DNA of 64,000 nt, from positions 46,697-110,696 of the forward strand of contig NZ_JAUNTO010000012.1 of NCBI RefSeq assembly GCF_030538655.1, read 5' to 3'. Positions 11,269 to 64,000 of the stretch are shown piece after piece. The DNA is from Paracoccus sp. (in: a-proteobacteria). Its GTDB lineage: Bacteria > Pseudomonadota > Alphaproteobacteria > Rhodobacterales > Rhodobacteraceae. The notes below the pieces were generated by a model. The model was not told where the DNA came from. It saw nothing but the letters and a program-made list of their open reading frames with translations, and did not search any database. Every line of letters starts with the position of its first letter. Position 1 is the stretch's first letter. Made by a program: the position numbers and the translations under genes.

Positions 11269-11271
11269 GGC

Positions 11272-11730: not shown

Positions 11731-11732
11731 GG

Positions 11733-12527: not shown

Positions 12528-12574
12528 CCGGGGACCAGCCCCCGGACCCCCGGCGTATTTGGGCAAACAGGAGG
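12528..12574. repeat. Rhodobacterales-type intergenic repeat, copy A
   Basis: A C-rich/G-rich run followed by CGTATTTGGGCAAACAGGAGG lies between ybgC and tolQ. Degenerate relatives occur at 43001-43030 and 46084-46129. Repeats of this shape are familiar from intergenic regions of Rhodobacteraceae; the role is unknown, and the ones flanked by stems may act as transcription stops. Confidence 0.6.
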
Positions 12575-12598
12575 CCGGGCGACGGTTTTCCGGTGCGG

Positions 12599-13003: not shown

Positions 13004-13489
13004 TCTGGGTCTCTTTCAGGTGGTGGCCGGGGCAGGGTGCCGTTCTTTGGGGCGCGCGTCCAGCCATGGGTTGTCTTGCTTGGGCTGGTTGCTGTGCGCG
13101 GCCGCAAGGCCCTGACGCTTTTATTCGGCACCTGGAATGAATGTTGAAAGTCTTGGGAAAAGCTCGCGCGGTTCGCGTGTTGTTTGCCGCTGGCGTTTCT
13201 GATCGTCCCATCGGGGGTGCGCGCAAGAAGATATTGCGCAGCAGGCCCAAAATCTGCGTCAGATCGTTGATAATCCGGGACAGGCCGCCAGACGGTGGGT
13301 GACATCGGCGGCGGCTTCCTGTTCGATCGCCTCGGGCGACAGGGATTGCGCCTATCTACGATCAGCAGGATTTTCCGGCCTTCGGTGTGGCGGCCTTGCA
13401 GAAAGGTCCGCCGCCGGCGCAGCGGTTCAAAGGGGCGACATCATCCTGCCCGAACGTCTGCAAAACCCAACGCAGCGGATTTATCGGAT
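13004..13489. other. Gene-poor region with possible decayed coding sequence
   Basis: Between ybgC and the tsaE-like remnant there is no frame with coding character for its whole length. On the minus strand, short runs such as SPEAIEQEAAADVTHRLAA and, after a shift, LSRIINDLTQILGLLRNIF look like fragments of a real protein broken by frameshifts, but I do not recognise the family. Confidence 0.4.
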
Positions 13490-13648
13490 CAGGCCAATAT
13501 GAGTGCGCCGCCGATGCAATTCGACAAAACTGCGGATCAGCAAGGTCTTGTCGGCGCCGACATCGCCGGTCAGCAGGGAAATGGCCTGACCTATTGGCAA
13601 GCGAAAACGCCATCATCGTCATGGCCTGACGGTGGTTGGCCAAAGTGA
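13490..13648 (-). pseudogene. Decayed tsaE-like ATPase fragment
   Basis: On the minus strand one frame reads RLPIGQAISLLTGDVGADKT followed by LLIRSFVELH. This closely follows the TsaE (YjeE) P-loop region, where LSGDLGAGKTT-x-x-R-x-F is expected. The Walker glycine before the lysine is replaced by aspartate (GADKT), the frame stops soon after, and the part before it is in another frame. TsaE normally helps make the t6A modification of tRNA and is essential in most bacteria, so a functional copy should exist elsewhere. This fragment is too short and broken to work. Confidence 0.55.
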
Positions 13649-13722
13649 ATGACGGGCCGGGAAGGCGTCATTGGGCGGGGACAGAATTGTGAAGAAATGC
13701 CCGTCGATTTCAGGGGTTCCCG

Positions 13723-14538
13723 TCATGATGCCGGAATGTCGCAGATCAGGCCGGGCAGGCTGGCCCTCAGCCCGGTGATGCCGCCGGGGTGCCAGCCCAT
13801 AGCCGCTAGCCCCGTGCAATCAGGCACGCGCAGCCCGCTGGCATCGGCGCGGGCGGGCAGAGGGTGGCGGCACCCGGTCAGCGCGGCGACCTCGGCCAGC
13901 AGATCGCGACGGTCCAGCACCAGATCACTGGCATTCAGCGTGGCGGGCGGGGCAGGGTGGCGCAGGATCAGGGCGATTGCGGCGGCCAGATCGTCGCCAT
14001 GCAGTTCGGTGGCGACATGCGGCTCTATCGGCTGCCCGGCCAGAAAATCGGCGAACAGCGGTGCCCATTTATGCGCCCGCCCCGGCCCATAGACGCCGGT
14101 TGCCCGCAGGCTGGTGCCGTGCAAGGGCAGGGCGGCCAGCGCGGATTCCGCCTGCGCCTTGATCTGCCCATACAGGCTGGTTGGCGCGGGGGGCAGGTCG
14201 TCGGGCAGGCGCATCCCCGGCGGGTGGCCGTCATGCACCGCGCGCGATGACAGAAACACCACGCGGCCCACGCCATCGCGGATGGCGGCATCCCACAGGC
14301 GCAGGGTGCCGTCCAGATTGGCGGCGCGGAAACCCGCCGGGTCGTCGCCCTCGCCGCCGCGATAGCGACCGGGGGCATGGGACAGCGCCAGATGCACCAG
14401 CGCATCGGTGCCGCGCAGGTCGGGCGTGTCGCCCAGCCGCCAGCCGGGCAACAGGTTCAGATCATACCCGGCAGCGGCCAGCGCGGGGGCGATCATGCCG
14501 CCCAGGCGCCCGGTTGCGCCGGTCAGCGCCACCCTCAT
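13723..14538 (-). CDS. NAD(P)-dependent epimerase/dehydratase-family protein (extended SDR)
   Basis: The N-terminus MRVALTGATGRLGG carries the TGxxGxxG nucleotide-binding loop of extended short-chain dehydrogenases. The catalytic YxxxK is present as SLYGQIKAQ (about residue 140), preceded by VVFLSSRAVHDG with its serine. 271 residues is a little short for sugar epimerases. It overlaps the glycosyltransferase gene behind it by four bases, which suggests a shared role in cell-surface sugar metabolism; the substrate cannot be told. Confidence 0.85.
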   Translation of the reverse strand: MRVALTGATGRLGGMIAPALAAAGYDLNLLPGWRLGDTPDLRGTDALVHLALSHAPGRYRGGEGDDPAGFRAANLDGTLRLWDAAIRDGVGRVVFLSSRAVHDGHPPGMRLPDDLPPAPTSLYGQIKAQAESALAALPLHGTSLRATGVYGPGRAHKWAPLFADFLAGQPIEPHVATELHGDDLAAAIALILRHPAPPATLNASDLVLDRRDLLAEVAALTGCRHPLPARADASGLRVPDCTGLAAMGWHPGGITGLRASLPGLICDIPAS

Positions 14539-15434
14539 GCGGCGGGGCGGATTTGTGCGCTCAGATCAGGCAGCGGGCCGCCTGCCGCGATGTCGCGCCA
14601 TATCTGGATCAAAGGACGCAACGCCGCCGCCTTGGCATGATCCGACCATGGCTTTTCGTATTGGTAATGAATGACATGCACGCTCTCCCAATCCCACAGC
14701 GCGGGCATATTGATCCAGACATATTGCAGCATGTTGTATTGGATTGGTAGCCCGTGCCAGTCGGGGAAAAAGTCCTGCAAGAAGGTCTGGTCGGTGCGCC
14801 GCCAGAACACGCCGGGCCGGTCCAGCTGCGCCATCATCGCATCAAAGGTCGCTGCATTGGGGCGGGCGGTGAATACGCCGGAATTCATACGGTGGAACCC
14901 GTCCAGCCCCTCATAGACATTGGGCGCGGCGCAGAATTCGGGAAAGCCGAACAGCTTGTCGATATTACGCACCACCAGCGCATCGGCGTCGATGAACACG
15001 GTGCGGGCATAATCCAGCTGCCACAGCCGCAGTTTCACGAAATTATCCAGCGGTGTGTGGAAATCGGGCTTGCCGCCACGGGTAAAGGCGGCACGGCTGT
15101 GCAGGGCGTCGCGGGCATGGGTGCGGTCGAATTCGGTCGAAGTGGGCAACAGATCCGCCGCGATCAGCCGCGCGCCAAGGCGGCGCAACCCATCCAGTGC
15201 GTCATGTGGGATGCCCCGGTGCATCACGGCGATGTCGGCCCCAGCCCCGGTGCCGGTCAGCCGCAGCGAGCGCACAAGTGCCTGTGCCCCCGGCAGATAG
15301 TCGGCATTTGTGACCAGCGTCACATAGGCGCGATCACCCTGCGGCCCGCGTTCGGCCTGCAAGCCGGGCGCAAGGGTGTAACAATCAGCAGGCGATTCTG
15401 TCCTGGTGATCGGGGGCGATGGTTGTATCGTCAT
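14535..15434 (-). CDS. Glycosyltransferase, family 8-like (glycogenin type)
   Basis: The protein opens with AYVTLVTNADYLPGAQALVRSLR, the usual beginning of family 8 (GT-A fold) glycosyltransferases, and has the metal-binding DxD as VFIDADALVVRNIDKLF (about residue 130), followed by FHRMNSGVFTARPN. Such enzymes use a UDP-sugar donor and retain the anomeric configuration. I prefer the ATG at 15434 (299 residues); an upstream frame to 15488 adds basic residues without a ribosome site. It is coupled to the SDR gene downstream. Confidence 0.85.
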   Translation of the reverse strand: MTIQPSPPITRTESPADCYTLAPGLQAERGPQGDRAYVTLVTNADYLPGAQALVRSLRLTGTGAGADIAVMHRGIPHDALDGLRRLGARLIAADLLPTSTEFDRTHARDALHSRAAFTRGGKPDFHTPLDNFVKLRLWQLDYARTVFIDADALVVRNIDKLFGFPEFCAAPNVYEGLDGFHRMNSGVFTARPNAATFDAMMAQLDRPGVFWRRTDQTFLQDFFPDWHGLPIQYNMLQYVWINMPALWDWESVHVIHYQYEKPWSDHAKAAALRPLIQIWRDIAAGGPLPDLSAQIRPAA

Positions 15435-15575
15435 GCTTTTCAATCTCTTGCGGGGCTTTTGCCGGGATTGCCGGGGCAACACTGTCACAATCGGATAAAT
15501 GAATTATGACAGCCGCCACGCGCCTTGGACAGAGCGCGGGATCACGCTAGAACCCCCTTCAGCGAGGAGACGCCC

Positions 15576-16955
15576 ATGCCCATTTCTGAACCTGCCATCG
15601 CCGCTTTGACCGATGTTTTCGGCGACCGCCTGTCGCAGCGCACAGCCGACCGCGATCACCACGCCGGGTCGGAAACCTTTCACCGCGCCCCGCCGCCCGA
15701 TGCGGTGATCTGGCCGCTGACCACGGCCGAGGTGTCGGCTGCGCTGGCGATCTGCAACGAACACCGCGTCCCGGTGATCGGCTGGGGCACCGGCACCTCG
15801 CTGGAGGGGCATGCGCTGGCGATCCACGGCGGGGTGGTGCTGGACCTGAGCCGGATGGACAAGGTGATCGACCTGCGCCCCGGCGATATGCAGGTGACGG
15901 TTCAGCCCGGCGTCACGCGTGAGGCGCTGAATACCGAATTGCGCGCGACGGGGCTGTTTTTTCCGGTTGATCCGGGGGCCAATGCCAGCCTTGGCGGCAT
16001 GGCTGCCACGCGGGCCAGCGGCACAACGGCGGTGCGATACGGCACCATGCGCGACAATGTGCTGGCGCTTGAAGTCGTGCTGGCCGATGGCCGGGTGATC
16101 CGCACCGGCACCCGCGCGGCGAAATCCAGCGCCGGTTACGATCTGACCGGGCTGATGGTCGGGTCTGAAGGCACGCTGGGCATCATCACCGAACTGACCT
16201 TGCGGCTGCACGGCCAGCCTGAACATGTCGCGGCGGCGGTTTGTGCCTTTCCGACGCTGGAATCGGCGGTCGAATGCGTCACTGCAACGATGCAGTCGGG
16301 CATTCCGATGGCACGGATCGAATTTGTCGATTCGCTGGGGATCAGGGCGGTGAACGCGATGGCGCATCGCAGCTATCCCGAAACGCCGCATCTGTTCGTG
16401 GAATTCAACGGCAGCGCGGAATCGGTGCGCGCCGATGCGGCGGCTTTCGGCGATCTGGCGCAGGATTTCGGCGGCACCGGATTCGACTGGGCCGACACGC
16501 CCGAGGCGCGCACGGCCTTGTGGAAGATGCGGCATCAGGCCTATCCGGCCTGTCTGGCGCTGCGCCCCGGTGCGACGGCGGTGGTGACGGATGTCTGCGT
16601 GCCGATGTCGCATCTGGCCGAGGCGGTGGCGGCAGCCAGCGCCGATATTGCCGAACAGGGGATGACCGGCCCGATTCTGGGTCATGTCGGCGACGGCAAT
16701 TTCCACGCCGCGCTGCTGGTTGACCCCGGCGATGCCGATCAACTGGCCCGCGCCAAGGCCATTGCCCGCCGCATGGCCGAACGCGCGTTGGCCGTGGGCG
16801 GCACGATCAGCGGCGAACATGGCATCGGCGTTGGCAAGCGTCCGCTGATGGCTGCCGAACATGGTGAAGGCTGGGCGGTGATGGGTGCGATCAAGGCGGC
16901 GCTGGACCCGCACAATATCCTGAATCCGGGTAAATTGATACCCGACCGGAATTGA
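15576..16955 (+). CDS. FAD-linked D-lactate/glycolate-type dehydrogenase (GlcD/LDHD-like)
   Basis: A 459-residue flavoprotein of the vanillyl-alcohol-oxidase fold. The FAD-binding part (residues about 40-220) shows VIGWGTGTSLEGHAL, DPGANASLGGMAATRASGT and GSEGTLGIITELTLRL. The C-terminal cap domain contains GHVGDGNFHAALL and the final ISGEHGIGVGKR, both typical of D-2-hydroxyacid dehydrogenases that feed electrons to the respiratory chain. The start at 15576 follows GAGGAG. It is divergent from the glycosyltransferase gene. D-lactate is the best guess for substrate, glycolate or D-2-hydroxyglutarate are alternatives. Confidence 0.85.
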   Translation: MPISEPAIAALTDVFGDRLSQRTADRDHHAGSETFHRAPPPDAVIWPLTTAEVSAALAICNEHRVPVIGWGTGTSLEGHALAIHGGVVLDLSRMDKVIDLRPGDMQVTVQPGVTREALNTELRATGLFFPVDPGANASLGGMAATRASGTTAVRYGTMRDNVLALEVVLADGRVIRTGTRAAKSSAGYDLTGLMVGSEGTLGIITELTLRLHGQPEHVAAAVCAFPTLESAVECVTATMQSGIPMARIEFVDSLGIRAVNAMAHRSYPETPHLFVEFNGSAESVRADAAAFGDLAQDFGGTGFDWADTPEARTALWKMRHQAYPACLALRPGATAVVTDVCVPMSHLAEAVAAASADIAEQGMTGPILGHVGDGNFHAALLVDPGDADQLARAKAIARRMAERALAVGGTISGEHGIGVGKRPLMAAEHGEGWAVMGAIKAALDPHNILNPGKLIPDRN

Positions 16956-17072
16956 CTTACCAAGCATTTGGATAAAATCATACAAATGTTAAATTCATCA
17001 TTTACCTTTTTGCTGACAAAAGTCTGTTCGTGGATGCTGACCGTCTGCTGATTCACGTCTGATGAATGTGCT
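16950..17072 (+). promoter_or_regulatory. AT-rich leader, possible sulfotransferase promoter
   Basis: A short stretch much richer in A and T than its surroundings separates the dehydrogenase from the sulfotransferase. TTGACT at about 16951-16956 followed 15-16 bases later by TAAAAT looks like a sigma-70 type promoter. The match is by eye only. Confidence 0.3.
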
Positions 17073-18074
17073 ATGAACACTGCTGACGCAATCACGGGTG
17101 ACAGGGTGGCTGCCGACCGTGCAGTGCGGGCGGCGGGTGTGATTGAGGTGCCGCCGGTTATTCTTTATGGCGCGCTGCGATCCGGCACGACCATGCTGCG
17201 GCTGATGCTGGATATGCACCCGCAGTTATCCTGCCCGACCGAGGCGGATTTCCTGTTCGATCACCTGCGGCCATCCGGTGGCGGCTGGATTCTGGATCGT
17301 AACCGCCTGCTGGGCGACCGGATTTTTATGCAGTCTTCTATTGCGCCGCCCCTCAGCCATCACGGCCAGCCTGCGGTGGCGGCGATGGTCGCGGCACTGG
17401 CGGCGAAAAAGCCGCAGGCACGGCTGATTCTGTTGCTGCATCGCGGGCTGGATGCCGCGCTGGCGCTGTTGCCCGATGCCCATGTCATCCACCTTGTCCG
17501 CGATCCGCGCGATGTGGCGATCTCGTCTGTTCGGATGGGCTGGGCGGGGGATGTGTATCATGCCGCGCAGCATTGGGTCGCAACCGAACATGACTGGGAC
17601 AGCGCGGCCACCGATCTGGCTGGCAGGCCGGTGGCGGTGCTGCATTTCGAACAACTGGTCGATGAGCCCAGGGAACAGCTCGCACGCCTGTGCGATTTTC
17701 TGGGTGTCGGCTTTGATCCGGCGATGTTGCACTTTCACGAAACATCCAGCTATCGCCCGGTCGATTCGTCCTCGTCCTTTCGATGGCAGCGGAACGCCAG
17801 GCTGTCGGATGTCGCCCTGATTGAAAGTGCTGTCGGTCCGCTGATCGCGGGGCGGGGCTATTCGCGCAGTCAGGCCGAGCCGGTGCGGCTGACACGGGCC
17901 CGGCTGCTGTGGGTCAAGCTGCGCGGCAAGGCCAAGCGGCTGGGGTTCCGCATCGACCGCTATGGCCTGCGCGATACGCTGCTGGAAAGCGCCTCGAACC
18001 GGCTGGGCCTGCCATGGCTGGGGCGCAATGCGCGGCTGCGGATTATGCAGGAAGACCTGCGCCATCTGGAATAA
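17073..18074 (+). CDS. Sulfotransferase-family protein
   Basis: A 333-residue P-loop protein that would transfer sulfate from PAPS to an acceptor. The 5'-phosphosulfate loop reads ILYGALRSGTTMLRLMLD (about residue 30) and the 3'-phosphate site VIHLVRDPRDVAISSVRMGWAG (split family motif, about residue 145). Further on, VLHFEQLVDEPREQLARLCDFLGV matches the region seen in the same family. Acceptor unknown; surface polysaccharide or a lipid is a reasonable guess given the glycosyltransferase nearby. It has its own AT-rich upstream region. Confidence 0.85.
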   Translation: MNTADAITGDRVAADRAVRAAGVIEVPPVILYGALRSGTTMLRLMLDMHPQLSCPTEADFLFDHLRPSGGGWILDRNRLLGDRIFMQSSIAPPLSHHGQPAVAAMVAALAAKKPQARLILLLHRGLDAALALLPDAHVIHLVRDPRDVAISSVRMGWAGDVYHAAQHWVATEHDWDSAATDLAGRPVAVLHFEQLVDEPREQLARLCDFLGVGFDPAMLHFHETSSYRPVDSSSSFRWQRNARLSDVALIESAVGPLIAGRGYSRSQAEPVRLTRARLLWVKLRGKAKRLGFRIDRYGLRDTLLESASNRLGLPWLGRNARLRIMQEDLRHLE

Positions 18075-18226
18075 GCGACCCCGCCACCCGCTGACCTTGC
18101 CCCGGCATCCCGGCACATAAAGCCGTGCCCGCCCTGTCCATACGGCGGGCGCGGCATTGGGCGCAGGTGGTGGCGGAACCCTGCACCGTCTCTGGCGTTG
18201 TCTTTTCAACCAGCAGGAGAGGCAAT

Positions 18227-18523
18227 ATGTCCCATAATCCGAATCCCGAAAAACAGACCCGCAAGCACAGCCCTGCCTTACTGGCGATTCTGGTGGCGCT
18301 GGTCGTTGCGGCAATGGTGTTTTTTGTGTTTGGCGGCTCGGACCCGTCCCCCGATGATCTGACACAGGTCGAGGTGCCGCAAACGGGTCAGGCCGCGGGC
18401 ACTGACACGACCCCGCCCACCCCCGCGGTCGAGCCGACGCCGGGCGATGAACCGCCGCAGGCCGAGGGTCAGCCCGCCACCTCGCCCCCTGATGAGACAC
18501 TGCCCACAGCACTGTCGAACTGA
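18227..18523 (+). CDS. Small single-pass membrane protein with proline-rich tail
   Basis: 98 residues starting at an ATG preceded by AGGAGA. A basic N-terminus (KQTRKHS) leads into one membrane helix (PALLAILVALVVAAMVFFVF, residues about 15-36); the rest is a low-complexity Pro/Thr/Glu/Ala tail predicted to lie in the periplasm. Proteins of this shape are common in Rhodobacteraceae but I know no function. The basic end inside and the acidic tail outside fit the positive-inside rule. Confidence 0.65.
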   Translation: MSHNPNPEKQTRKHSPALLAILVALVVAAMVFFVFGGSDPSPDDLTQVEVPQTGQAAGTDTTPPTPAVEPTPGDEPPQAEGQPATSPPDETLPTALSN

Positions 18524-18632
18524 TGCGCAGGGTGCCTGCACGCTGACGCTTTCGTGAAACTCGCGCACCCGTGACTTTGGGCGCGGGTTTTGCGATAGAG
18601 ACGAAAAGCTTTTCAAATCATCCGGGGGCAGG

Positions 18633-19436
18633 GTGCGTCAGGCAACGAAACTTCTTTTGGGGCTGGTTCTGGCCGTCATGGCCGCTTGTGGTCCCGCGCC
18701 GCAGCAGCGGGCGTCCGGTCCGGCGGTTATGGCAGGTAGCGTGCCGACCACAGTGCCGCAACTGGGCGACCGCGCGCCGCATCCATGGATCGGCGGTCAT
18801 CCCTATGCCCATCCGGTGCATGGCATCGACGTGTCACGCTGGCAGGGCAGTGTTGACTGGAACCGCGTGCGTAATGCCGGTGTCAGCTTTGTGTTCATCA
18901 AGGCGACCGAGGGCGGCGACCACGCCGACCCGAACTTCCGCCGTTACTGGTATGAAACCGCACAGGCCCGCATCCCGCGCGGGGCCTATCATTATTTTTA
19001 CTTCTGCCGCTCGGGGCGTCAGCAGGCGGAGTGGTTCATTCGTAACGTGCCGCGCGAACGCGGCGCGCTGCCGCCGGTGCTGGATCTGGAATGGACGGCA
19101 TCGCGCACCTGCCCGCGCCGCCCGCCCAGCCACGAGGTTCTGCGCGAGGCCAAGATCTTCAAGGACATCCTGCATCAGCACTATGGTCAGCGGCCGATCA
19201 TCTACACCACGGTCGATTTCTATCGTGACAATGACATGCGGTCCTGGCCCGAAGAATTCTGGCTGCGCAGCGTCGCGGGCCACCCGCGCATCGTCTATCC
19301 GGGGCAACGCTGGACCTTCTGGCAATACAGCGGCACCGGCATCGTGCCGGGGATCAGCGGCGATGTCGATCTGAACGTCTTTGCCGGCTCGCCCGCGCAA
19401 TGGCGGCAATATCTGAACCAGCGACTGCAACGATGA
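18633..19436 (+). CDS. GH25-family lysozyme-like lipoprotein
   Basis: A GTG start gives 267 residues with a lipoprotein signal (LLLGLVLAVMAAC). The mature part is a glycoside hydrolase family 25 domain (muramidase): HGIDVSRWQGSVDWNRV, FVFIKATEGGDH, and the catalytic DxE as PVLDLEWT (about residue 150). GH25 enzymes cut the MurNAc-GlcNAc bond of peptidoglycan. As a lipoprotein it would act in the periplasm on the cell's own wall. The stop overlaps the start of the following CPBP gene, so they form an operon. Confidence 0.9.
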   Translation: MRQATKLLLGLVLAVMAACGPAPQQRASGPAVMAGSVPTTVPQLGDRAPHPWIGGHPYAHPVHGIDVSRWQGSVDWNRVRNAGVSFVFIKATEGGDHADPNFRRYWYETAQARIPRGAYHYFYFCRSGRQQAEWFIRNVPRERGALPPVLDLEWTASRTCPRRPPSHEVLREAKIFKDILHQHYGQRPIIYTTVDFYRDNDMRSWPEEFWLRSVAGHPRIVYPGQRWTFWQYSGTGIVPGISGDVDLNVFAGSPAQWRQYLNQRLQR

Positions 19437-20101
19437 CGACCAGCGATTCCCTGCCGCGCGCCAACCGCCGCCTGCGGCTGGGCATCGAATTTGCGCTGCT
19501 GTATGTCGGCGCCCCGTTGGCGATTGCGCTGTTTCTGCCGCCGCGGCAGATGTTTTCGGCGCTGTTTCTGCTGACACTGGCCGGGCTGGTTCTGCTGCAT
19601 TGCACGGGTGGGTTCGACTGGCGGTCGCTGCTGCGCGGCTGGCGCCAGATTCCGTGGCGCGAGGCAGCGGTTCTGGCCGCTGTCACCTTGGTCAGCGGTA
19701 TCGTTATCTTGTGGTTGTCGGGGCGGCAGGACGCGATTTTTAATATTCTGCGGGTGCAGCCCGAAATGCTGCTGATGATCTGGGCGTTATATCCGCTGCT
19801 GTCCGCTTTGCCGCAGGAACTGATCTTTCGCCCGCTGTTCTATCACCGCTATGGCAGCCTGTTTGCCAGCCGCAAACAGGCGCTGATGGTGAACGCGGCG
19901 GTCTTTTCCTTTGCACATCTGATGTATTGGTCGGCCATCGTCTTGCTGATGACCTTTGTCGGCGGCTGGATTTTCGGTCGCGCCTATCTGAAACATGGCT
20001 TTCCGGCGGCCTGGCTGCTGCACGCCATTGCCGGGAATATCATCTTTGCCGTCGGCATGGGGGTGTATTTCTGGTCCGGCAATGTTCAGCGCCCCTTCTG
20101 A
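19433..20101 (+). CDS. CPBP-family intramembrane protease homologue
   Basis: A 222-residue multi-pass membrane protein of the CAAX-protease/bacteriocin-processing (CPBP) family. Motif 1 reads [17 protein letters not shown] (family EExxxR, with Q in place of the first E), motif 2 is FSFAHLMYW (FxxxH), and motif 3 is HAIAGNI (HxxxN). About six membrane helices can be seen. The Q at a position normally held by a catalytic glutamate may reduce activity. The start is on an ATGA overlap with the GH25 gene. Confidence 0.85.
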
Positions 20102-56500: not shown

Positions 56501-56723
56501 AGACCGTAAACTCATAAACTGACTTGCATGATCTGGGATGGATTGCTTCAAGGCTTTTGAAGGAGCCTTCGATGACGCATCGCAGATTTGAGCTTACCGA
56601 TTTGGAATGGGATGTCATCGAGCCATTATTGCTGAACAAGGTGCGCGGTGTGCCGCGAGTGGATGATCGGCGTGTGATCAACGGGATATTGTGGCGCTTT
56701 CGCACGGGCAGCCCATGGGCGGA
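56501..56723 (+). mobile_element. 5' part of an IS5-family insertion sequence
   Basis: The left end appears to lie near 56501, where CTAGACCGTAAACTCATAAA begins; ends of this look and a CTAG-type target are usual for IS5/IS427-group elements. A transposase gene starts at 56572 after AAGGAG and reads THRRFELTDLEWDVIEPLLL and later VDDRRVINGILWRFRTG, ending at SPWAD where the Mu-like element is inserted. It continues in frame at 63799. Confidence 0.8.
56719..56723. repeat. 5-bp target-site duplication GCGGA, left copy
   Basis: GCGGA directly precedes the TG end of the inserted element; the same five bases follow its CA end at 63794-63798. Five base pairs is the duplication made by Mu-type transposition. 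Confidence 0.85.
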
Positions 56724-56730
56724 TGTTATC

Positions 56731-56748
56731 GGTCATCAAAACCTGCAG
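56731..56748 (+). promoter_or_regulatory. Left-end transposase-binding motif (L1)
   Basis: GGTCATCAAAACCTGCAG, seven bases inside the left terminus. It matches 14 of 18 positions of the right-end motif R2 when that is read from the right terminus inward. Confidence 0.75.
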
Positions 56749-57170
56749 TAAGCCGGGATTATCTGGGATCAGCCGATCAGAGGTGAAAAGGCCAAGGATT
56801 ACCGAGCCTTGAGGGGCGAGGGTTGGTTGATCGGGCGCGGGCGCAAGTGTCTTGCAGTCGAGCCTGAAAACGGCATTTAGGGCGCCTTAAACGCCGAGGC
56901 AGCGTGGCAGTGTAAGAGCATATGTCGTACGCATTTGAGCCAATAAAATAAGGCGTTCGGGGCCGTGTCGTGGTCGTTGAACATGGCACTATGCCCGATC
57001 CAGGTGGTGCCAATGGTCGATGCTAGCGCGCCGACCGGGGCCGAAGTCCGGCTGATCCGGCCATCCTGTAAAGCGATAATTGTGCCGGGCAGCTTCGATC
57101 CCGGCTGGGGGCGCAGCGGCGGGATGCGATCCGGCGTCACCTTCACCTGCCAGCAGACGATGAGATAGCC
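56749..57170. other. Phage left-end remnant and deletion zone
   Basis: About 420 bases between the left terminus and the first tail gene. Open frames exist on both strands (for example 56965-57168 plus) but none has a recognisable product. The large internal deletion that removed most of the phage must have its junction here, or just before 57171. Confidence 0.5.
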
Positions 57171-57782
57171 ATGGTTGCCCATATCTCCCAAGCAGAGCAC
57201 GATCATCTGCGGTCCCGCGCGACACGCGATGTGGCGATATTGCTGTGGATCGTTGCGAAGGACATTCACGATGGCAGCATCGTTCGCACCGGGTTATGGA
57301 CTGGCAAGGATCACCGCGAATTTCGGGTCGAAGGGCAGAGCCGTGGCTACTTCGGCGCGGGCGGCCTCGTGTCGGTCGGGCCGATCCGGTCGGTAATCGG
57401 CACGGATGTCCAGGAGACGACGGCCTCTTTCGCGCTGACCGCACCTGAGGTCGAACTGGCGGTGCGGCGTTATGAGCTGCGTCAGGCCGATGTTGAAATC
57501 CATCGCGCGCTTTTCGACGCCTTTAGCGGCGAGCTGATCGGCATCACCCGGAAATTCAAGGGCTGGATCGATCGGCTTGAGATCACCGGGGTGACAGACA
57601 CAGCACCCGGTCGCTGTGAGGTTGTGATGGCCGGGGCCGCGCGGTGCGGCACGCGCGGGCTGTCGCTGAAACGATCCGATGCCAGCTATCAGCTACGGAA
57701 GCTGCCCGACGGCCGCCCCGATCTGTTCGGGCAGTATGGCGATATTTCAGGCTCCGTTCCCGTCAAATGGGGGGGCGCATGA
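57171..57782 (+). CDS. Phage tail-tip protein, DUF2163-like
   Basis: 203 residues. A beta-rich protein with RGYFGAGGLVSVGPIRSVIGTD, a middle VELAVRRYELRQADVEIHRALFD, then KFKGWIDRLEITGV, and a C-terminal RSDASYQLRKLPDGRPDLFGQYG with V..KWG at the very end. That ending and the place just before an NlpC-like gene fit the DUF2163-type baseplate or tail-tip proteins of Rhodobacterales phages and gene transfer agents. It is coupled to the next gene by an ATGA overlap. Confidence 0.65.
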   Translation: MVAHISQAEHDHLRSRATRDVAILLWIVAKDIHDGSIVRTGLWTGKDHREFRVEGQSRGYFGAGGLVSVGPIRSVIGTDVQETTASFALTAPEVELAVRRYELRQADVEIHRALFDAFSGELIGITRKFKGWIDRLEITGVTDTAPGRCEVVMAGAARCGTRGLSLKRSDASYQLRKLPDGRPDLFGQYGDISGSVPVKWGGA

Positions 57783-58183
57783 GGGTTTATAACTGGGAAG
57801 CCCGGCTGTCCGATTACATTGCGCAGGTCGCTGAACGACCCTTTGAATATGGCGTTTATGATTGCGCGCTGTTCGCCGCCGGCGGCGTCGAAGCCGTCAC
57901 CGGTACCAATCCGGCGGCGCAGTGGGTCGGTCGATACCAGTCTGATCTGGCCGGACGGCGGCACATGCGCCGCGCCGGATATGCCGACCATATCGATTGC
58001 GCCATGACCATGTTTCCCCCGATCGGCCACGCCATGCGCCTGCCAGGCGATCTGGCGGTGGTCCTTCAGGGCGATGCAGGAGCGCTTGGTATCCTGCATG
58101 GCGCGCTGATCTATGTCCTGCGCCCCGACGGGCTTGGCATCATCGGCATCGAGCGCGCCGATCTTATCCTCGGGGTGCGCTGA
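57779..58183 (+). CDS. Phage tail protein, DUF6950/NlpC-like
   Basis: 134 residues with the N-terminal phrase WEARLSDYIAQVAERPFEYGVYDCALFAAGGVEAVTG (quoted in parts: FEYGVYDCALF holds the cysteine) followed by GDLAVVLQGDAGALGILHGAL. In the phage tail cassette this protein is the counterpart of the NlpC/P60-type peptidase that opens the cell wall; the expected Cys is there and a His in LHGAL may be the partner. It starts on the stop of the DUF2163-like gene and stops on the start of the next. Confidence 0.7.
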   Translation: MRVYNWEARLSDYIAQVAERPFEYGVYDCALFAAGGVEAVTGTNPAAQWVGRYQSDLAGRRHMRRAGYADHIDCAMTMFPPIGHAMRLPGDLAVVLQGDAGALGILHGALIYVLRPDGLGIIGIERADLILGVR

Positions 58184-58713
58184 TGCCCGCCGTCGGAGCC
58201 GCCATCGCCGTCGTCGGTAGCTGGGCCACCACAGCTGTGGTTGGCAAAATTGCCACAAACCTGCTGATCAGCGCCAGCTTGACGGCCGTTCAATCAGCGC
58301 TGCAGCGCAATGCCGCAAAGCGCCAGCCGCAGCCGGGCATCCAGACGGAATTCACCACCAGCGGCGGCGCGCAGCCCATGGCCTTTCTGGTCGGGCGCTA
58401 TGCCACCGGCGGTCATATGGTCTGCCCGCCGATGTCGCATGGCAAATCGGACCGCAACCCCAATGCCTTTCTGACCTATGTGATTTCACTGGGCGATGTG
58501 CCGGGCGCGGCACTGAACAAGGTGATTATCAATGATAGAGAAGTCAGGTTTTCCGACGTGCCCAAGGATATGCCCATTGGCGGTCCGATTCCGCAGGGCA
58601 AAAGCGCGCGCTGGTATCAGCCAGACGACAATCACGGGGCAAATCAAGCTGCCGGATGGCAATGCAGCACAGATCACAGCAGTCGATTTTACGTTGGCCG
58701 CCGCCGATTTTGA
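58183..58713 (+). CDS. Host-specificity/tail-tip protein, N-terminal part only
   Basis: 176 residues. The N-terminal helices AAIAVVGSWATTAVVGKIATN and the following QPGIQTEFTTSGGAQPMAFLVGRYATGG, then LGDVPGAALNKVIINDREV, are the usual start of the large (often over 1,000-residue) phage/GTA host-specificity protein. Here the homology ends at about KDMPIGGPIPQGK (near 58605) and the frame runs on into a sequence that belongs to the next gene in another frame. A deletion has removed the body of this protein. Confidence 0.65.
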   Translation: MPAVGAAIAVVGSWATTAVVGKIATNLLISASLTAVQSALQRNAAKRQPQPGIQTEFTTSGGAQPMAFLVGRYATGGHMVCPPMSHGKSDRNPNAFLTYVISLGDVPGAALNKVIINDREVRFSDVPKDMPIGGPIPQGKSARWYQPDDNHGANQAAGWQCSTDHSSRFYVGRRRF

Positions 58714-59041
58714 AGCTGGTCAGATTATCGCTGCTCATAAGGTCAGCGCCACGGTCGATGCTCAGGGAGCATTCAGCGTGACATTGTGGCCCAACAGCGC
58801 GGGAGAGAGGGGAAATACCAGCTACAAGGTGGTGTTCAAGCTGGTCGACGGGGCGGTGGTTTCCGAAATCAAGAGTCTGTTTGTGCGGGCGTCTGAATCG
58901 CCACGAAACATCGAGGATGTGGTGATCGAGAACACCAAAATTTTGTCAAATTTTGGCACCATATTGCTGTCAGAGGGGGAATGGCAGGCGCTGACGGTAA
59001 TGAAGCCGAATACCGTCTACTTCGTTCTGCGTGAGGTGTAA
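58532..59041 (+). CDS. Phage tail beta-sandwich protein, start lost at a deletion junction
   Basis: The open frame starts at 58532, but its first 27 codons are the shadow of the upstream gene; real coding character begins at about 58613 (ISQTTITGQIKLPDGNAAQ). The rest reads like a beta-sandwich domain of phage tails (FTLAAADFEAGQIIAAHKVSA, TSYKVVFKLVDGAVVSEIKSLF, ESPRNIEDVVIE). It is 2 bases upstream of the next tail gene. Original start and N-terminus are missing, so it may not be made. Confidence 0.55.
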   Translation: MIEKSGFPTCPRICPLAVRFRRAKARAGISQTTITGQIKLPDGNAAQITAVDFTLAAADFEAGQIIAAHKVSATVDAQGAFSVTLWPNSAGERGNTSYKVVFKLVDGAVVSEIKSLFVRASESPRNIEDVVIENTKILSNFGTILLSEGEWQALTVMKPNTVYFVLREV

Positions 59042-59043
59042 TT

Positions 59044-60465
59044 ATGCATGGCTTCATCGGACGGGTTGCGCAGATCTATATCACCGACAGCCAAGGTCGC
59101 CCTCGGCGTACGGACATGTTTCTTAATGGCCGAGATATGCTGAGTGGCCTGCGGTTCACAGCGCATCCACAGATCAATGGCGAGCCGTTGATCGGCCAGA
59201 CGCTGACCGTCAGTGCGGATGCCGAGGGAGCAGCACTCAGCTATCAGTGGATACGAGACGGCGCAGTCATCAGCGGTGCAACTGCAGCAAGATATGAGGT
59301 GGTTCCGGCAGACGACCTTTGCCAGATTGGTGTACTCGTGACCGCTGCGGTTGGCGAGGACGGCATTAGTGCTGCGGTATCTGCAGGTGTCGCGCGCTGG
59401 CCAGCACCGGTTGCAATCGGCTCGATCGGAAATCGCAGCTATATGGTCGGTCAGACCGTGCCTGCCACTGATCTGCGAACCAAATTCCGTGGCGGTGCGC
59501 TAAACTATACGATTATGCCGGACGACGGTCAGCTTTTGATCGATGGCCATAACCTCATATTTGCGACTGAGGCTGCCTATAGCGGATCATTCGTGATCAC
59601 GGCCAGCAATAGCGGTGGAGAAGCCATTCTGCCCGCGTTTTCAGTGACCATTGAGGCGGTGCATCATTCCGACCCCGACCCGCCGAACGACCTTCTTAGC
59701 ACCAGCGAGGGCGCGATCAGCAATGTGGTCGAGCGGCAGGACGGGGCGAATTCGTTCACCCTGATAGGGACAGAACATGCTGGTGATTACTCCGTATTTG
59801 CTACTGACATCGCATCGGGGCACCCGATTGTTCTGGTCCCGCCGACTGTCGGGGAAAGCCCCGCCGGGACGTTCCGCATCAGCAAATTCGGCTTCTATGT
59901 CTACCCGTCTGACGCGCCGGCTGTGGCAACGCATGCCTGGCTGGTTGACAATCTGGAGGTTGCCACAGGGACGGAGTTTGTCAGTGAAAATACTCACGCG
60001 TTCGGGCAGATCGAACTGGAATTGCGCGTCTCGAATATCAATAGCATGGTGTCCGGGACAACGATTGCGACCCGCGTGACCGCGCAGGAGCCGCAAATGT
60101 TCACTGCGGCACCGTCTGTCTTCCGCAAGTCGGATAGCAGCCGTGTGCACTTTGCGGAACAGGCGATCCCTATTGATCCGGTTAACGAACTGATCCTGGC
60201 AGGCCGCATCAAATACGAGCCACACACTGGCGAATCGCGGGTGGCGGGTCTTGCTTTCCGGCTGGCGGATCAGGCCGAGCATTTGGCAATCAATGTGACA
60301 CAGACAGGCACGCTTAACATCCGCACACGTTTTGCTCATGCAGACGGGTCCTCTCGTGCGATCAATTATCTGGACGGGATGCCCGCGATCCACCCGGAGA
60401 CGTGGTTGATTTTGTCCAGGTCGCTGGTCCGATTGGCACCAACGCGGCGCGCACAAGCTATGTGA
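59044..60465 (+). CDS. Phage tail protein with Ig-like repeats, frameshifted near its C-terminus
   Basis: A 473-residue open frame. Early MHGFIGRVAQIYITDSQGRP is followed by bacterial Ig-like and fibre-type domains (TLTVSADAEGAALSYQWIRDG, GSFVITASNSGGEAILPAFSV). The proper frame is lost at 60393-60397: in the next frame HPGDVVDFVQVAGPIGTNAAR continues sensibly, while this frame goes on as LSRSLVRLAPTRR before stopping. Restoring one G makes CCCGGG and joins the frames. If both frameshifts in the region are repaired the protein would be 594 residues, ending at 60826. Confidence 0.7.
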   Translation: MHGFIGRVAQIYITDSQGRPRRTDMFLNGRDMLSGLRFTAHPQINGEPLIGQTLTVSADAEGAALSYQWIRDGAVISGATAARYEVVPADDLCQIGVLVTAAVGEDGISAAVSAGVARWPAPVAIGSIGNRSYMVGQTVPATDLRTKFRGGALNYTIMPDDGQLLIDGHNLIFATEAAYSGSFVITASNSGGEAILPAFSVTIEAVHHSDPDPPNDLLSTSEGAISNVVERQDGANSFTLIGTEHAGDYSVFATDIASGHPIVLVPPTVGESPAGTFRISKFGFYVYPSDAPAVATHAWLVDNLEVATGTEFVSENTHAFGQIELELRVSNINSMVSGTTIATRVTAQEPQMFTAAPSVFRKSDSSRVHFAEQAIPIDPVNELILAGRIKYEPHTGESRVAGLAFRLADQAEHLAINVTQTGTLNIRTRFAHADGSSRAINYLDGMPAIHPETWLILSRSLVRLAPTRRAQAM

Positions 60466-60826
60466 CGGCACGGGTGAACGGCGGCGACTGGGTGGCGCCA
60501 ATTCATGGGCGGTCTCTGCTGCCCATCGGTGATCGACAATTCATGTGGCCCGATGGGGCCACCAGTTATGCGCCCAAAATCAGCGCACTCGCGGATAATA
60601 CTGCCGCGCAAGACAATGGTTCGATTTCTTTCGATGCACCCGGCTTCTGATCTCTCTGGGCGAAACCCTGACGCTGGACGAGGCAAAGTCTCTGTTCTGG
60701 CGACCAGACGGAACCATGCAGCCGCCGGGTGTGATCCGTCTCAGGATCACCGCCCCGATCATCGACTTTTATGGTGGCCGGAATCACGGAACGATTGGCG
60801 CGCCGACCATCAACACCGCAGCGTAA
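60393..60826 (+). pseudogene. Displaced 3' part of the same tail protein (two frameshifts)
   Basis: After the first shift the frame reads DFVQVAGPIGTNAARTSYVT and RQFMWPDGATSYAPKI to FDAPG, then shifts again at 60639-60643 and continues as LLISLGETLTLDEAKSLFWR, GVIRLRITAPIIDFYGGRN and stops at 60826. Both breaks are cured by one extra base in a CCCGG context. The sequence on each side keeps coding quality, so the breaks are recent or are sequencing errors. Confidence 0.75.
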
Positions 60827-60835
60827 GGGGGTATC

Positions 60836-61144
60836 ATGTCGAAAAAATATCATCTGTCGGTCGCGAACGAGGACGCCAGTGCGCATCTGTTCTGGTCCAC
60901 GGAAAATGACGGCTTTGAAACCATTGGCCTCAGCATGAATGAGGAGGGCATGTTCGGGAACACACTGGGTTCCCGAACGGGTAAGGTGTCCAAGGGCCGC
61001 ATTCGCCCCGTCACCATGGATATTCACGCATGGCGCCCGACCGCTTTTGACAAGGCGTCACGCAAGATCAGCTTCGGGCCGAATACTGTCGCCGGATATG
61101 AGTTTTTATCGACGGATGGGCGAATGGCGGCACGGTGGATGTGA
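60836..61144 (+). CDS. N-terminal part of tail-fibre gene, cut by a one-base frameshift
   Basis: 102 residues from an ATG after a GGGG stretch: MSKKYHLSVANEDASAHLFW, then GSRTGKVSKGRIRPVTMDIHA and FGPNTVAGYEF. At the T-run 61103-61107 the frame is lost; one extra T would give GYEFFIDGWANGGTVDVMRVV and join the protein to the long frame that starts at 61135. I therefore think this and the next entry were one gene of about 943 residues. Confidence 0.65.
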   Translation: MSKKYHLSVANEDASAHLFWSTENDGFETIGLSMNEEGMFGNTLGSRTGKVSKGRIRPVTMDIHAWRPTAFDKASRKISFGPNTVAGYEFLSTDGRMAARWM

Positions 61145-63666
61145 TGCGTGTCGTCGATGACAAAATGACCGAAATAGGTCGGGTCAACATTACAGACACT
61201 ATCGCACGCCAGATTGTCCCAATCGGTGGCGCCACGCGCGGCCTGGTTGCGGGTCACGGAGAGCTGATCCACCAATTTTCCAGATACTATGGGCTGGAAG
61301 TGCCCATGTATATCGCCGTTGCGGCGGTCAGCGAGAATGGCGAGATCAGCGCATGGTCCGAACCTGCCAAGGTCGATCTGGTGGCCGGTTCTGATGCAAT
61401 CACCCCCACGCCGGCGGATCATTTCACCACTGTACCCAGCTATCCACACGCCTCCCCGGACGTCTCGGTTCCGAAGCCCACGAACGTCACTGTGCAGGCT
61501 GTCGGCAATCGCGCCATCAAGGTCAATTTCGCCCCCGCCCTCGGCCTGCGTCACGTTGTGGCCATGTCGTGGCACCCCTCCTTCACCAATGAAGAAGCTA
61601 TCACCGTGGATGGTGATATTGACATTGAACTGACCGATTTTCTCGTGGTCCGCACGACCTTTGTGGACATGGATATGGCCAAATATGCCTGCGGGCGCAT
61701 GGTCCATGTAGAGTCGTTCAATGCGAACTCCCCCGGCGTGCCCAGCTTCAATCAGTGGATGCCCAAGGGTGTTACGGGTGAACTTCTGACGGATGTGGAC
61801 GGCACACCGTTCGGACGGATCAGGATCGAGGATGGGGTGGAATACAATATCAACGCCTATGTGCATCAGGGCACGGATGGGGCCTGGTATCCCATTCTCG
61901 ACCCCGCCCGCCGCTATCGCTGGATTACCGGCATTCGCGCGCAATCCCCGACAACCGCTCGATTCCAGGTATTGGGATCGACAACGCCCCGCTCGATCCA
62001 GGAGATCGGAACGGATTGGAGTGATGTCGAGATCGCGTTCGGCGTGAATGAACCTCGCATCGATGGAACGGCACAACCGGCCCGGATCACATTAACCGGC
62101 CCTTGCGTGGTGGATCTGCGGCGTTTCGCGGTATTCGAGGACGGCACCGAATACCTGCATTTCCGCGAGCAAGAGCGGCGAACGCTGCTGGACGGCACAC
62201 TGCCCTATCTACGCATTCATTCGATGTGCAAATCGCGACCCAGGGTTTATATTGCGGCTGATGCCCTGCATCCTTGGGGCACGAACGCGCGCGGTTATTC
62301 GTTTTGGGCGTTTTTCAACAGTCTGAAGCAACTCAAGGAAAGCCTGGAAGGTCAGGCGGCGCAGGCAAAGGTTGGCCGCCCGTGTTTCAATCCATGGATA
62401 CAGATCGAACCGCCCCATGCGCGCAGGGACGAACTGCGGACCTATGCGGGCTGGCTGTGCACGACCTATGACGCGAGCGCCGAGCAAACCCCCGAGCAGG
62501 TCGGCGCAAAAATGCGCGTTGACGCCGGGCAGGTCGAGCCGTGGCAGGATGTGTTCGAAACCATCATGATCGAGATGGGGAACGAGCCGTGGAACAACAT
62601 GTCCGCATTTTTCTATTATGAAGGCATTGATGGTGTTGCGTCGGGCGGCAAGCTTAATGGCATGTGGCTGCAACGGTTTGCCAACATCATGGAGGCCACC
62701 CCCGGTTATAACCCGGACAAGTTCAGATTTTACCTGAACGGCACGGGCAACAATCCCAATTACATCCCGGACGGCCTGTCCGTGTGCCCCGCCGCCGATT
62801 ACACCGGATTTGCCTATTATATCATGGGCTGGGACGTCGGCATGAATATCATGCCAGATTCCAGAAATCAGGACCTGATGGCATATCAGGCGGCGTCTAC
62901 ACATGCCACCTATCAAAGCAAAAACCTGCCAGGTACCAAGTATGTTACCCTGATGAACAGCCTGGAAGACATCAACAAGACCCGTGAAAAGAAGGTCCGG
63001 GTCATAGGATACGAATATGGGCCGGGTTATGAGACTGTGGGCGGCACGATCTGGCAAGAGCGCAGTCAGAAATCCAAGCTGCTCGGGAACTCGACCCTTG
63101 ATGTTTTGATGACCAACGCCAGTCTCGGCAATATTTCCGACACCTTCTTCACGGTATCTACGGGGCGGCTGTTCAGGGGTCGCACACAGCCTCCACAGGG
63201 CGGCGCTTATGCTCCGTCGCTGATGTGGCAAAATTTCGTGAACGAACATCTGCTTGGTAAAACCACGCGGGTCATGCCGGTGAAGGGCGCGTCTCTGCCG
63301 GGTGTGACGCTTGAAACCCGCGATGATGAAGGCAATCCGGCCCCCGGAACGTCCTCGCTGGCGGCCCGCTTCGTGCAAGAGGCTGTTCGCGTGTTCCGGG
63401 TCGATCGCAAGGATGGCAGCATCGCTTTTGTTCTGATCAGCACTGACACGCAAAATATGCAGACCATGAAGCTGGGCTTCCCGCCCCGCGCCCGCCGCTG
63501 GACGAAATGGACGATGGAGGGCGACATGCTGGCCTATAACCAGACCTTGGCCACCAAGGATGATGTCCGCTTTGAAAGCCAGCAGATGCCTGACGATTGG
63601 GGAGGCAGCATGATCGAGATCGCCCTGCAACCCGGCACGGCCGAGGTGTATATTGAGAGTGCGTGA
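61135..63666 (+). CDS. Phage tail-fibre protein with clan GH-A glycosidase-like domain
   Basis: 843 residues. A fibronectin-like N-terminal part (about 85-150) precedes a beta domain and a TIM-barrel region. Around residue 480 the motif IMIEMGNEPWNNM has the Asn-Glu pair that carries the acid/base residue in clan GH-A glycosidases; the likely nucleophile is in RVIGYEYGPGYE, around residue 625. A C-terminal beta part (FVLISTDTQNMQTMKLGF) completes it. This would fit a tail spike that cuts host surface polysaccharide. Family within the clan is not clear. It lies at the right end of the Mu-like element where tail-fibre genes belong. Confidence 0.7.
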   Translation: MDVMRVVDDKMTEIGRVNITDTIARQIVPIGGATRGLVAGHGELIHQFSRYYGLEVPMYIAVAAVSENGEISAWSEPAKVDLVAGSDAITPTPADHFTTVPSYPHASPDVSVPKPTNVTVQAVGNRAIKVNFAPALGLRHVVAMSWHPSFTNEEAITVDGDIDIELTDFLVVRTTFVDMDMAKYACGRMVHVESFNANSPGVPSFNQWMPKGVTGELLTDVDGTPFGRIRIEDGVEYNINAYVHQGTDGAWYPILDPARRYRWITGIRAQSPTTARFQVLGSTTPRSIQEIGTDWSDVEIAFGVNEPRIDGTAQPARITLTGPCVVDLRRFAVFEDGTEYLHFREQERRTLLDGTLPYLRIHSMCKSRPRVYIAADALHPWGTNARGYSFWAFFNSLKQLKESLEGQAAQAKVGRPCFNPWIQIEPPHARRDELRTYAGWLCTTYDASAEQTPEQVGAKMRVDAGQVEPWQDVFETIMIEMGNEPWNNMSAFFYYEGIDGVASGGKLNGMWLQRFANIMEATPGYNPDKFRFYLNGTGNNPNYIPDGLSVCPAADYTGFAYYIMGWDVGMNIMPDSRNQDLMAYQAASTHATYQSKNLPGTKYVTLMNSLEDINKTREKKVRVIGYEYGPGYETVGGTIWQERSQKSKLLGNSTLDVLMTNASLGNISDTFFTVSTGRLFRGRTQPPQGGAYAPSLMWQNFVNEHLLGKTTRVMPVKGASLPGVTLETRDDEGNPAPGTSSLAARFVQEAVRVFRVDRKDGSIAFVLISTDTQNMQTMKLGFPPRARRWTKWTMEGDMLAYNQTLATKDDVRFESQQMPDDWGGSMIEIALQPGTAEVYIESA

Positions 63667-63670
63667 CGCT

Positions 63671-63705
63671 GGGTGCTGTCGGTGCGTGTTACACCGACAG
63701 CACCC
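63671..63705 (+). terminator. Long perfect hairpin after the tail-fibre gene
   Basis: A 14-base perfect stem (GGGTGCTGTCGGTG and its complement) with a seven-base loop, five bases after the stop. There is only a weak T-run, so it may act as a terminator with help or protect the mRNA end. Confidence 0.75.
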
Positions 63706-63746
63706 TTGAAACGCCGTTTCACGCCCCGTGAAACATTTTCTGCGTG

Positions 63747-63786
63747 CTGCAACTTTTGATGTCAAACACTGCAAGTTCTTGTGTCA
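63747..63786 (-). promoter_or_regulatory. Right-end transposase-binding motifs (R1 and R2)
   Basis: Read from the right terminus inward: R1 TGACACAAGAACTTGCAG (63769-63786) and R2 TGACATCAAAAGTTGCAG (63747-63764). They are 14/18 identical and spaced 22 bp apart, like the contiguous 22-bp MuA sites of Mu attR. R1 has the same offset from the end as the left motif. Confidence 0.75.
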
Positions 63787-63793
63787 TGCTGCA

Positions 63794-63798
63794 GCGGA
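63794..63798. repeat. 5-bp target-site duplication GCGGA, right copy
   Basis: Directly follows the CA terminus of the Mu-like element and matches the left copy at 56719-56723. Confidence 0.85.
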
Positions 63799-63900
63799 TA
63801 TCCCTGAGCGCTATGGCCCGCACACCACCTGCTACAATCGCTTCGTGCGGTGGCGTGAAGCGGGCGTGTGGGACCGGCTTCTGGCTTCGGTTAGCGCGGC
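63799..63900 (+). pseudogene. IS5-family transposase, continuation after the inserted element
   Basis: IPERYGPHTTCYNRFVRWRE and GVWDRLLASVS continue the transposase interrupted at 56723. After about 63900 the match to IS5 proteins fades; another frame (RLADAEGITVHHSAVCTLL) is open to the window edge. So the IS may carry a further lesion, or its end lies beyond the window. Confidence 0.75.
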
Positions 63901-64000
63901 TTGCCGATGCCGAGGGGATCACCGTTCATCATTCAGCCGTGTGTACCCTGCTTGCAGGATGCAAGGCTGAACCTGTTGGCCTAGGCATTTACTGCGAGAA

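What the first reader, a model, noticed from the sequence alone, without database searches (positions are those of the whole stretch)
56719..63798. Mu-like prophage remnant with both ends and target duplication intact, sitting in an IS5 transposase
TG...CA termini, a perfect 5-bp duplication (GCGGA), and in-frame restoration of the IS5 transposase when the element plus one duplication copy is removed. Only 7 kb is left, of which most is tail genes. The ends could still be substrates for a helper transposase, so the element may be a phage-derived satellite that can be mobilised in trans.
Basis: partly seen in the sequence, partly recalled or inferred. Interest (0 to 1): 0.85.

Follow-up and report, generated by a model that had tools for sequence, protein, structure and literature searches.

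The report
Gutted Mu-like prophage inside IS5
A 7-kb leftover of a Mu-type virus of bacteria, with both original ends and the insertion scar still readable but its transposase and most other genes deleted, sits inside an old insertion sequence of a Paracoccus-like bacterium; related leftovers occur in the genus, and nothing found shows that this one can still move.

Summary
A 7,070-bp element (56724-63793) lies in an IS5-family transposase gene between perfect 5-bp duplications (GCGGA). Four relatives' IS copies run through the site with one copy of the 5 bp. Both ends belong to a Mu-like phage family of Paracoccus and relatives: the right-end pattern occurs in 16 of 125 genus genomes, never in the reversed control, and begins the record of induced phage vB_PeaS-P1. 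Full-length prophages with these ends, a duplication and MuA exist (G043 37.2 kb, G056 40.3 kb).

No transposase or repressor gene was found in the element. Its left end is joined to the end of a tail gene, and the tail-tip gene is cut after 145 codons: a deletion derivative.

The satellite idea has no positive support: one copy, no relative found with its junction, an altered outermost left site, and an only MuA in the assembly that belongs to a prophage with other ends. It is not excluded.

By-product: three other elements with both ends and duplications but no MuA match (1.3, 18.1, 25.7 kb) occur in the genus.

The parts
56572..56723 (+). 5' part of IS5-family (DUF4096) transposase gene, including the first copy of the target duplication
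   Evidence: Pfam PF13340 positions 1-49; relatives' IS copies align up to 56723
56719..56723 (.). target-site duplication, copy 1 (GCGGA)
   Evidence: exact 5-bp overlap in four relatives' IS copies
56724..56963 (+). left phage end: terminal site TGTTATC-GGTCA-...-CTGCAG (TGACA in the other left ends seen) and left-end non-coding region
   Evidence: alignment with left ends of G028, L034, G033 (two)
56963..56998 (.). deletion junction 1 (approximate): left-end region joined to the end of a minor tail gene; the genes that lie between these in full-length relatives are missing
   Evidence: left-end homology runs to about 56963; tail homology starts at 56986-56998 in four relatives
56998..57155 (+). 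3' stub of a minor tail protein gene
   Evidence: tblastx to G028, G043, G013, G030; alignment with the stop codon in place
57171..57782 (+). tail protein, 203 aa, complete
   Evidence: PHROG 2048; 63% identical over 201 of 203 aa to G028
57779..58183 (+). DUF6950 tail-associated protein
   Evidence: PF22262 E 4.8e-38, PHROG 2134
58183..58617 (+). first 145 codons of the tail-tip (J-like) gene, cut off
   Evidence: 73% identical to residues 1-145 of a 1273-aa protein of G028; PHROG 5616 positions 10-131 of 873 only
58616..59041 (+). tail accessory gene directly after deletion junction 2
   Evidence: 44% identical to a 144-aa protein of G028 that lies beyond the J gene and a 196-aa gene there
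59044..60650 (+). Ig-like virion/tail protein gene, reading frame apparently broken near 60.4 kb
   Evidence: ORFs 59044-60465 and 60402-60650; weak PHROG matches, Hoc-like head decoration 2e-5 and tail protein 3e-5; break not confirmed by a homologue
60836..63666 (+). large virion/tail-associated protein gene, frame apparently broken near 61.1 kb
   Evidence: ORFs; 33% identical to residues 42-884 of the 884-aa protein G000:C36:82291-84945, aligned from 61114 in the downstream frame
63700..63793 (-). right phage end: two sites TGACA-N8-TGCAG (at 63786 and 63764, reading on the - strand)
   Evidence: 79% identical over 84 bp to G028:C213
63794..63798 (.). target-site duplication, copy 2 (GCGGA)
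63794..63913 (+). continuation of the IS5 transposase; IS homology stops at about 63913
   Evidence: PF13340 positions 48-75; plasmid IS matches shown cover query 1-120 only

Best explanation
A Mu-like siphovirus with vB_PeaS-P1-type ends integrated by transposition into an IS5-family transposase gene, making a 5-bp duplication. Two internal deletions then removed roughly 30 kb (estimate from the 37-40 kb of full-length relatives): one from the left-end region to a minor tail gene, one from within the J gene to a downstream tail gene. Two remaining genes have apparent frame breaks. What is left is a decaying, transposase-less prophage. Shown: both ends, duplication, unoccupied site in relatives, both deletion boundaries, no MuA in the element. 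Inferred: that the deletions happened in place after insertion and that the element no longer moves.
For: Ends, duplication and empty site. End family: right-end pattern in 16 of 125 genomes, none in control; left-end alignment. Full-length elements with the same ends, duplication and MuA: G043 37,159 bp and G056 40,313 bp; L034 carries MuA, a MuB-like ATPase, Gam and an S24 repressor behind the same left end. Target choice is Mu-like: 19 of 30 right-end flanks have the YSR core of Mu's CYSRG consensus (PMC7350765, passages) against 15.4% of 1,200 control 5-mers, p 3.6e-9, the 30 ends not being fully independent. Collinear with G028 except for two gaps. Partial elements are common: 24 of 30 right ends had no accepted left partner, a number of them for want of contig.
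Against: The two frame breaks could be sequencing errors (draft assembly, 48 contigs). At least one gene (57171-57782) is complete. Four elements keep both ends and a perfect duplication without a MuA match, somewhat more order than random decay might leave, though my pairing selected for exactly that. No longer version of the prophage at this IS site was found, so decay in place is not shown directly.
Confidence: 0.88

Rival explanations
1. A non-autonomous Mu element: it was already deleted when it inserted here, moved by the transposase of a related phage in the same cell, and could be moved again.
For: Both ends and a clean duplication are present without a transposase gene. Three more elements in the genus have the same design: G045 1,314 bp (duplication GCGGA), G039 18,119 bp (CCCAT), G047 25,700 bp (CAGGC), none with a MuA match. 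Right-end sites are intact in sequence. Mini-Mu units moved by helper transposase are a laboratory tool (PMC5847225, start of abstract in listing).
Against: One copy only in the genome. No relative among 101 genomes was found to join left end and tail as here (only two candidates per genome were scored), and the exact junction 25-mer is absent from viral contigs. The outermost left site reads GGTCA where 10 of 10 other left ends of the family read TGACA (several of these were found with patterns that favour TGACA). The only MuA of the assembly (C26) belongs to a prophage whose ends read GGGACACTTGAATC. Where one genome holds two right ends, the inner sequences compared share no long common deletion derivative (some copies were short of contig).
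Confidence: 0.08
2. An assembly artefact that joined phage fragments between two IS pieces.
For: Draft assembly, and the contig ends in or just after the IS, about 200 bp past the element.
Against: A perfect 5-bp duplication with an exact 5-bp overlap in four relatives' IS copies and phage termini at both boundaries would be an improbable artefact.
Confidence: 0.03
3. Tail genes kept for host use (a tailocin-like module) rather than decaying.
For: The remaining genes are almost all tail-type genes, and a 203-aa tail protein is intact.
Against: No tape measure, sheath, lysis or regulator gene was recognised among the ORFs scanned; the J gene is cut after 145 of about 1,273 codons; two other genes have apparently broken frames.
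Confidence: 0.01

Closest known systems
Pelagibaca phage vB_PeaS-P1 (KT381865), induced Mu-like roseophage (PMC5488378: start of abstract in listing, and one find call, 72)
   Same: Right end of the same form: the record begins GG then TGTAGCGTGACA...TTGCAGTGTTTGACA...TTGCAGCA. Its MuA is 67% identical to that of the full-length relative G056.
   Different: 38.9-kb phage record with transposase, head and tail genes; no convincing similarity of its tail genes to those of the window.
   Same: Same ends and 5-bp duplication. G043 also has tail genes 65% identical in DNA to the window's, on another contig, C11.
   Different: 37.2 kb with complete MuA; the window's element keeps 7 kb and no MuA. 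Whether the C14 prophage is one of the named ones in that paper was not established.
Bacteriophage Mu and laboratory mini-Mu (recalled, apart from the papers cited)
   Same: TG...CA termini, 5-bp duplication, YSR-type target core, repeated transposase-type sites at the ends.
   Different: Different end sequence; natural deletion rather than construct; no evidence of activity.

Membership tests
Mu-like transposable (pro)phage, vB_PeaS-P1-type ends | 5'-TG...CA-3' termini with end sites shared with full-length phages | tested here: met
   the left terminal core departs (GGTCA for TGACA)
Mu-like transposable (pro)phage, vB_PeaS-P1-type ends | 5-bp target duplication at the insertion site | tested here: met
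   GCGGA on both sides; overlap of exactly 5 bp in 4 of 4 relatives' IS copies compared
Mu-like transposable (pro)phage, vB_PeaS-P1-type ends | MuA (DDE) transposase and MuB ATPase genes | tested here: not met
   No such Pfam match in the 8 element ORFs scanned; PF02914 in G000 only at C26; no MuA or MuB match by tblastn in the stretch holding the element. Hence filed as a defective remnant, not as an autonomous member
Mu-like transposable (pro)phage, vB_PeaS-P1-type ends | Tail module collinear with a full-length-type relative | tested here: met
   Collinear with G028:C177 from 56998 to about 59026 apart from the gaps; no significant match there for the genes right of 59044
Phage satellite / non-autonomous mobilisable element | Same element at more than one site, or in more than one strain, with different duplications | tested here: not met
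   Single copy; no other genome found with the junction among 101, two candidates scored per genome; exact junction absent from viral contigs
Phage satellite / non-autonomous mobilisable element | Helper transposase recognising its ends | tested here: inconclusive
   No matching helper in the 90%-complete assembly: C26 MuA is 35-40% identical to the family's and its prophage has other end sites, sharing the outer half (TGTAGCG, one base, GACAC). Binding itself is not testable here
Phage satellite / non-autonomous mobilisable element | Own regulatory or capsid-hijacking genes | tested here: not met
   The 8 ORFs scanned gave tail-type matches, one DUF6950 and weak Ig/Hoc-like matches, or nothing

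The most novel reading that the evidence does not exclude
The genus carries a population of natural non-autonomous Mu elements (1.3 to 25.7 kb, both ends, clean duplications, no MuA) that arise by internal deletion of Mu-like prophages and are spread in trans by full-length relatives, the way MITEs follow their parent transposons; the window's element is one of them.
Probability: 0.08. Interest if true: 0.65.

Novelty: new member of a known kind. Interest (0 to 1): 0.3.

Why it matters
It is a clean natural example of how a transposing phage dies: ends and scar survive, the core is lost. The end motif found on the way is a sequence tag for Mu-like prophages and their remnants in Paracoccus and relatives (17 stretches in genome contigs). 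It makes the question 'do natural mini-Mu elements move?' testable by looking for one deletion junction at two sites.

Tried and rejected
A DNA search of the 'phages' collection with the whole region found nothing. A scan of viral contigs with the 203-aa tail protein gave 9 pattern matches and no confirmed relative, and a 21-mer of the window's right end was absent there. L033, one of two viral contigs with the left-end 20-mer, has it inside an ORF and shows no phage end; it was dropped as a chance match.

I first read a frame break at 57168. The alignment shows that 57171 is the start of the next gene, so this was dropped.

Pairs that I did not accept, because the left candidate lacks the TGACA or TGCA core or the duplication mismatches: G056 25,073 bp; G004 4,289 and 2,087 bp; G153 8,420 bp (duplication matches, left site does not); G043 15,138 bp; G002 17,840 bp; and 17,446 and 5,361 bp in G000. 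Of the 30 right ends (22 genomes) examined were paired (G047, G056, G043, G045, G039, G000) and 24 not. Those 30 come from two searches, are not a random sample, and leave out G000:C26 (weaker score) and G117 (no right end found in the stretch taken).

'No MuA' in G047, G039 and G045 rests on PF02914 and on tblastn with two MuA queries; another type of transposase was not searched for.

A PDB sequence search with the 843-aa protein found nothing. Papers: the rows listed by the searches show no paper on natural non-autonomous Mu elements. The lists are capped (for example 8 of 395), and the library holds open-licence papers only. The find searches added nothing used here.

Full report
What was checked. 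The window is G000:C44:46697-110696 and ends where the contig ends. The element is 56724-63793, 7,070 bp, between two copies of GCGGA. The left flank carries DUF4096 profile positions 1-49 and the right flank positions 48-75. Joined, the flanks read in one frame across the site. I searched 125 genomes of the genus for the left IS flank; 17 matched, this genome included. Of the 20 places listed in other genomes, 4 were compared with both flanks. In all four, left homology ends and right homology begins with a 5-bp overlap, so the site occurs without the element and with a single copy of the 5 bp (in three of the four the right flank matched only in translation). The IS copy here is itself cut short: in the rows shown, IS homology stops about 120 bp into the right flank.

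The ends. The left end aligns with the left ends of G028:C177, two contigs of G033 and IMG/VR contig L034. L034 shows what I read as host genes up to that point and then a Mu-like phage with S24 repressor, MuA (DDE_2, E 4.4e-45), a MuB-like ATPase and Gam. The right end carries two sites of the form TGACA-N8-TGCAG. The pattern TGNAGCNTGACANNNNNNNYTGCANNGTTTGACANC, with up to 2 mismatches, occurs in 16 of 125 genus genomes (19 places), and in none when read backwards. In genome contigs a stricter form occurs in 17 stretches, titled Paracoccus, Gemmobacter, Salipiger, Ruegeria, Pseudogemmobacter, Puniceibacterium or Rhodobacteraceae bacterium; that all these belong to the Rhodobacteraceae in the older sense is recalled. 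In viral contigs it occurs in 7 stretches. Contig lengths identify some handles: G039 as P. sphaerophysae HAMBI 3106, G043 as P. sanguinis DSM 29303, G045 as Paracoccus sp. 2205BS29-5, G124 as P. lutimaris. The window's genus is therefore Paracoccus; this is inferred from kinship, not from a record name. The record of the induced phage vB_PeaS-P1 begins with the same right end (induction from the start of the abstract of PMC5488378).

Full-length and deleted relatives. Pairing right and left ends by identical 5-bp duplications gave six elements with this end family. G056 is 40,313 bp and G043 37,159 bp, both with MuA. G047 (25,700 bp), G039 (18,119 bp), the window (7,070 bp) and G045 (1,314 bp) have no MuA match. 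PF02914 matches 14 of 125 genomes of the genus. Against G043, the G039 element aligns in blocks with two large gaps, of about 8.6 and 11.6 kb. The first is where what I read as a portal gene is fused to a tape-measure gene in one 1,293-aa ORF; the second holds G043's MuA. The G045 element keeps about 30 bp of left end, the 3' part of a late gene, a regulator-like gene and the right end (gene names my reading). The right-end flanks prefer the Mu target core: 19 of 30 fit NYSRN against 15.4% of 1,200 control 5-mers, p 3.6e-9. The published Mu consensus is CYSRG (PMC7350765, passages). The duplications of the seven paired elements (C26 included) fit in 4 of 7.

What is missing in the window's element. 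The closest relative of the tail region is G028:C177, a 38.4-kb contig with a left end at one side and MuA inside; 72% DNA identity over 1.56 kb. Left-end homology runs to about 56963, and tail homology starts at 56986-56998 in four relatives. There the left end is joined to the last 50-odd codons of a minor tail gene. The next gene is complete (203 aa against 203 aa in G028, 63% identical). The J gene is cut after residue 145 of 1,273, and the following sequence matches a 144-aa gene that in G028 lies beyond J and a 196-aa gene. Further right there was no significant match to the G028 proteins. The two remaining large genes have apparent frame breaks near 60.4 and 61.1 kb; for the second, a homologue in the same genome (G000:C36) aligns from 61114 in the downstream frame. 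These breaks could be sequencing errors.

Can it still move? For: the right-end sites are intact in sequence, and mini-Mu units are moved by helper transposase in the laboratory (PMC5847225, start of abstract). Against: one copy; no other genome among 101 found to join left end and tail in this way, two candidates scored per genome; the exact junction 25-mer absent from viral contigs. The outermost left site reads GGTCA where 10 of 10 other left ends of the family read TGACA (G028, L034, two of G033, G039, G043, G045, G047, G056, G112). L034 and the two of G033 came from a pattern outside that core; most of the others were found by scores or patterns that favour it, so the 10 of 10 is partly by selection. 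The only MuA in the assembly is at C26. It belongs to a 35.9-kb prophage (C26:56-35955, duplication AGCAG) whose ends carry GGGACACTTGAATC sites; only the outer half resembles this family's ends. Its MuA is 35-40% identical to the family's. The assembly is 90% complete, so a matching helper could be missed. In genomes with two right ends I found no two copies sharing one long deletion derivative: G153's copies share 81 and 582 bp, G004's 191, 567 and 127 bp, G047's 726 bp, and those of G048, G115, G039 and G033 about 50-60 bp; several of these copies are cut by contig ends.

Verdict. An ordinary defective Mu-like prophage with unusually readable borders. Three further elements with both ends and clean duplications but no MuA match are the most interesting by-product. 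They do not by themselves show mobilisation, because the pairing picked elements with both ends.

Noticed in passing
G045:C31:11055-12368 (L090): A 1,314-bp element with both ends of the same Mu-like family and a 5-bp duplication (GCGGA), holding only the 3' part of a late gene and a regulator-like gene: a natural mini-Mu by structure. No second full-length match among 125 genus genomes (three candidates scored per genome).
   Followed up: partly
L024 (G039:C54) 1420-19538: An 18.1-kb element with both ends and duplication CCCAT, no MuA match, and an apparent in-frame fusion of portal and tape-measure sequence in one 1,293-aa ORF. A second right end of the same family ends 30 bp before it (position 1389).
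   Followed up: partly
G047:C1:415936-441635 (L064-L066): A 25.7-kb element with both ends and duplication CAGGC, no MuA match, an IS-like transposase fragment near the left end and a sulfatase-like gene among its late genes (gene names my reading of ORFs).
   Followed up: partly
L039/L040 (G000:C26:56-35955): A complete-looking Mu-like prophage in the window's own genome with a different end motif (GGGACACTTGAATC) and duplication AGCAG.
   Followed up: partly
L031 (G000:C36:82291-84945): An 884-aa homologue (33%) of the window's last large gene, downstream of a 964-aa ORF and next to genes that look like dTDP-rhamnose synthesis (my reading); possibly another phage remnant.
   Followed up: no
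L023 (G033:C130) and L041 (G033:C164): Two left ends of the same phage family in one genome, alike for about 650 bp by eye and then diverging, one apparently into an IS and the other into a host gene: they look like solo left-end remnants.
   Followed up: partly
window 63905-64000: IS5 homology stops near 63913; the first 36 bases from 63905 match three Roseovarius plasmids at a gene annotated IS630 family transposase (97%), so another IS may begin at the contig end.
   Followed up: partly
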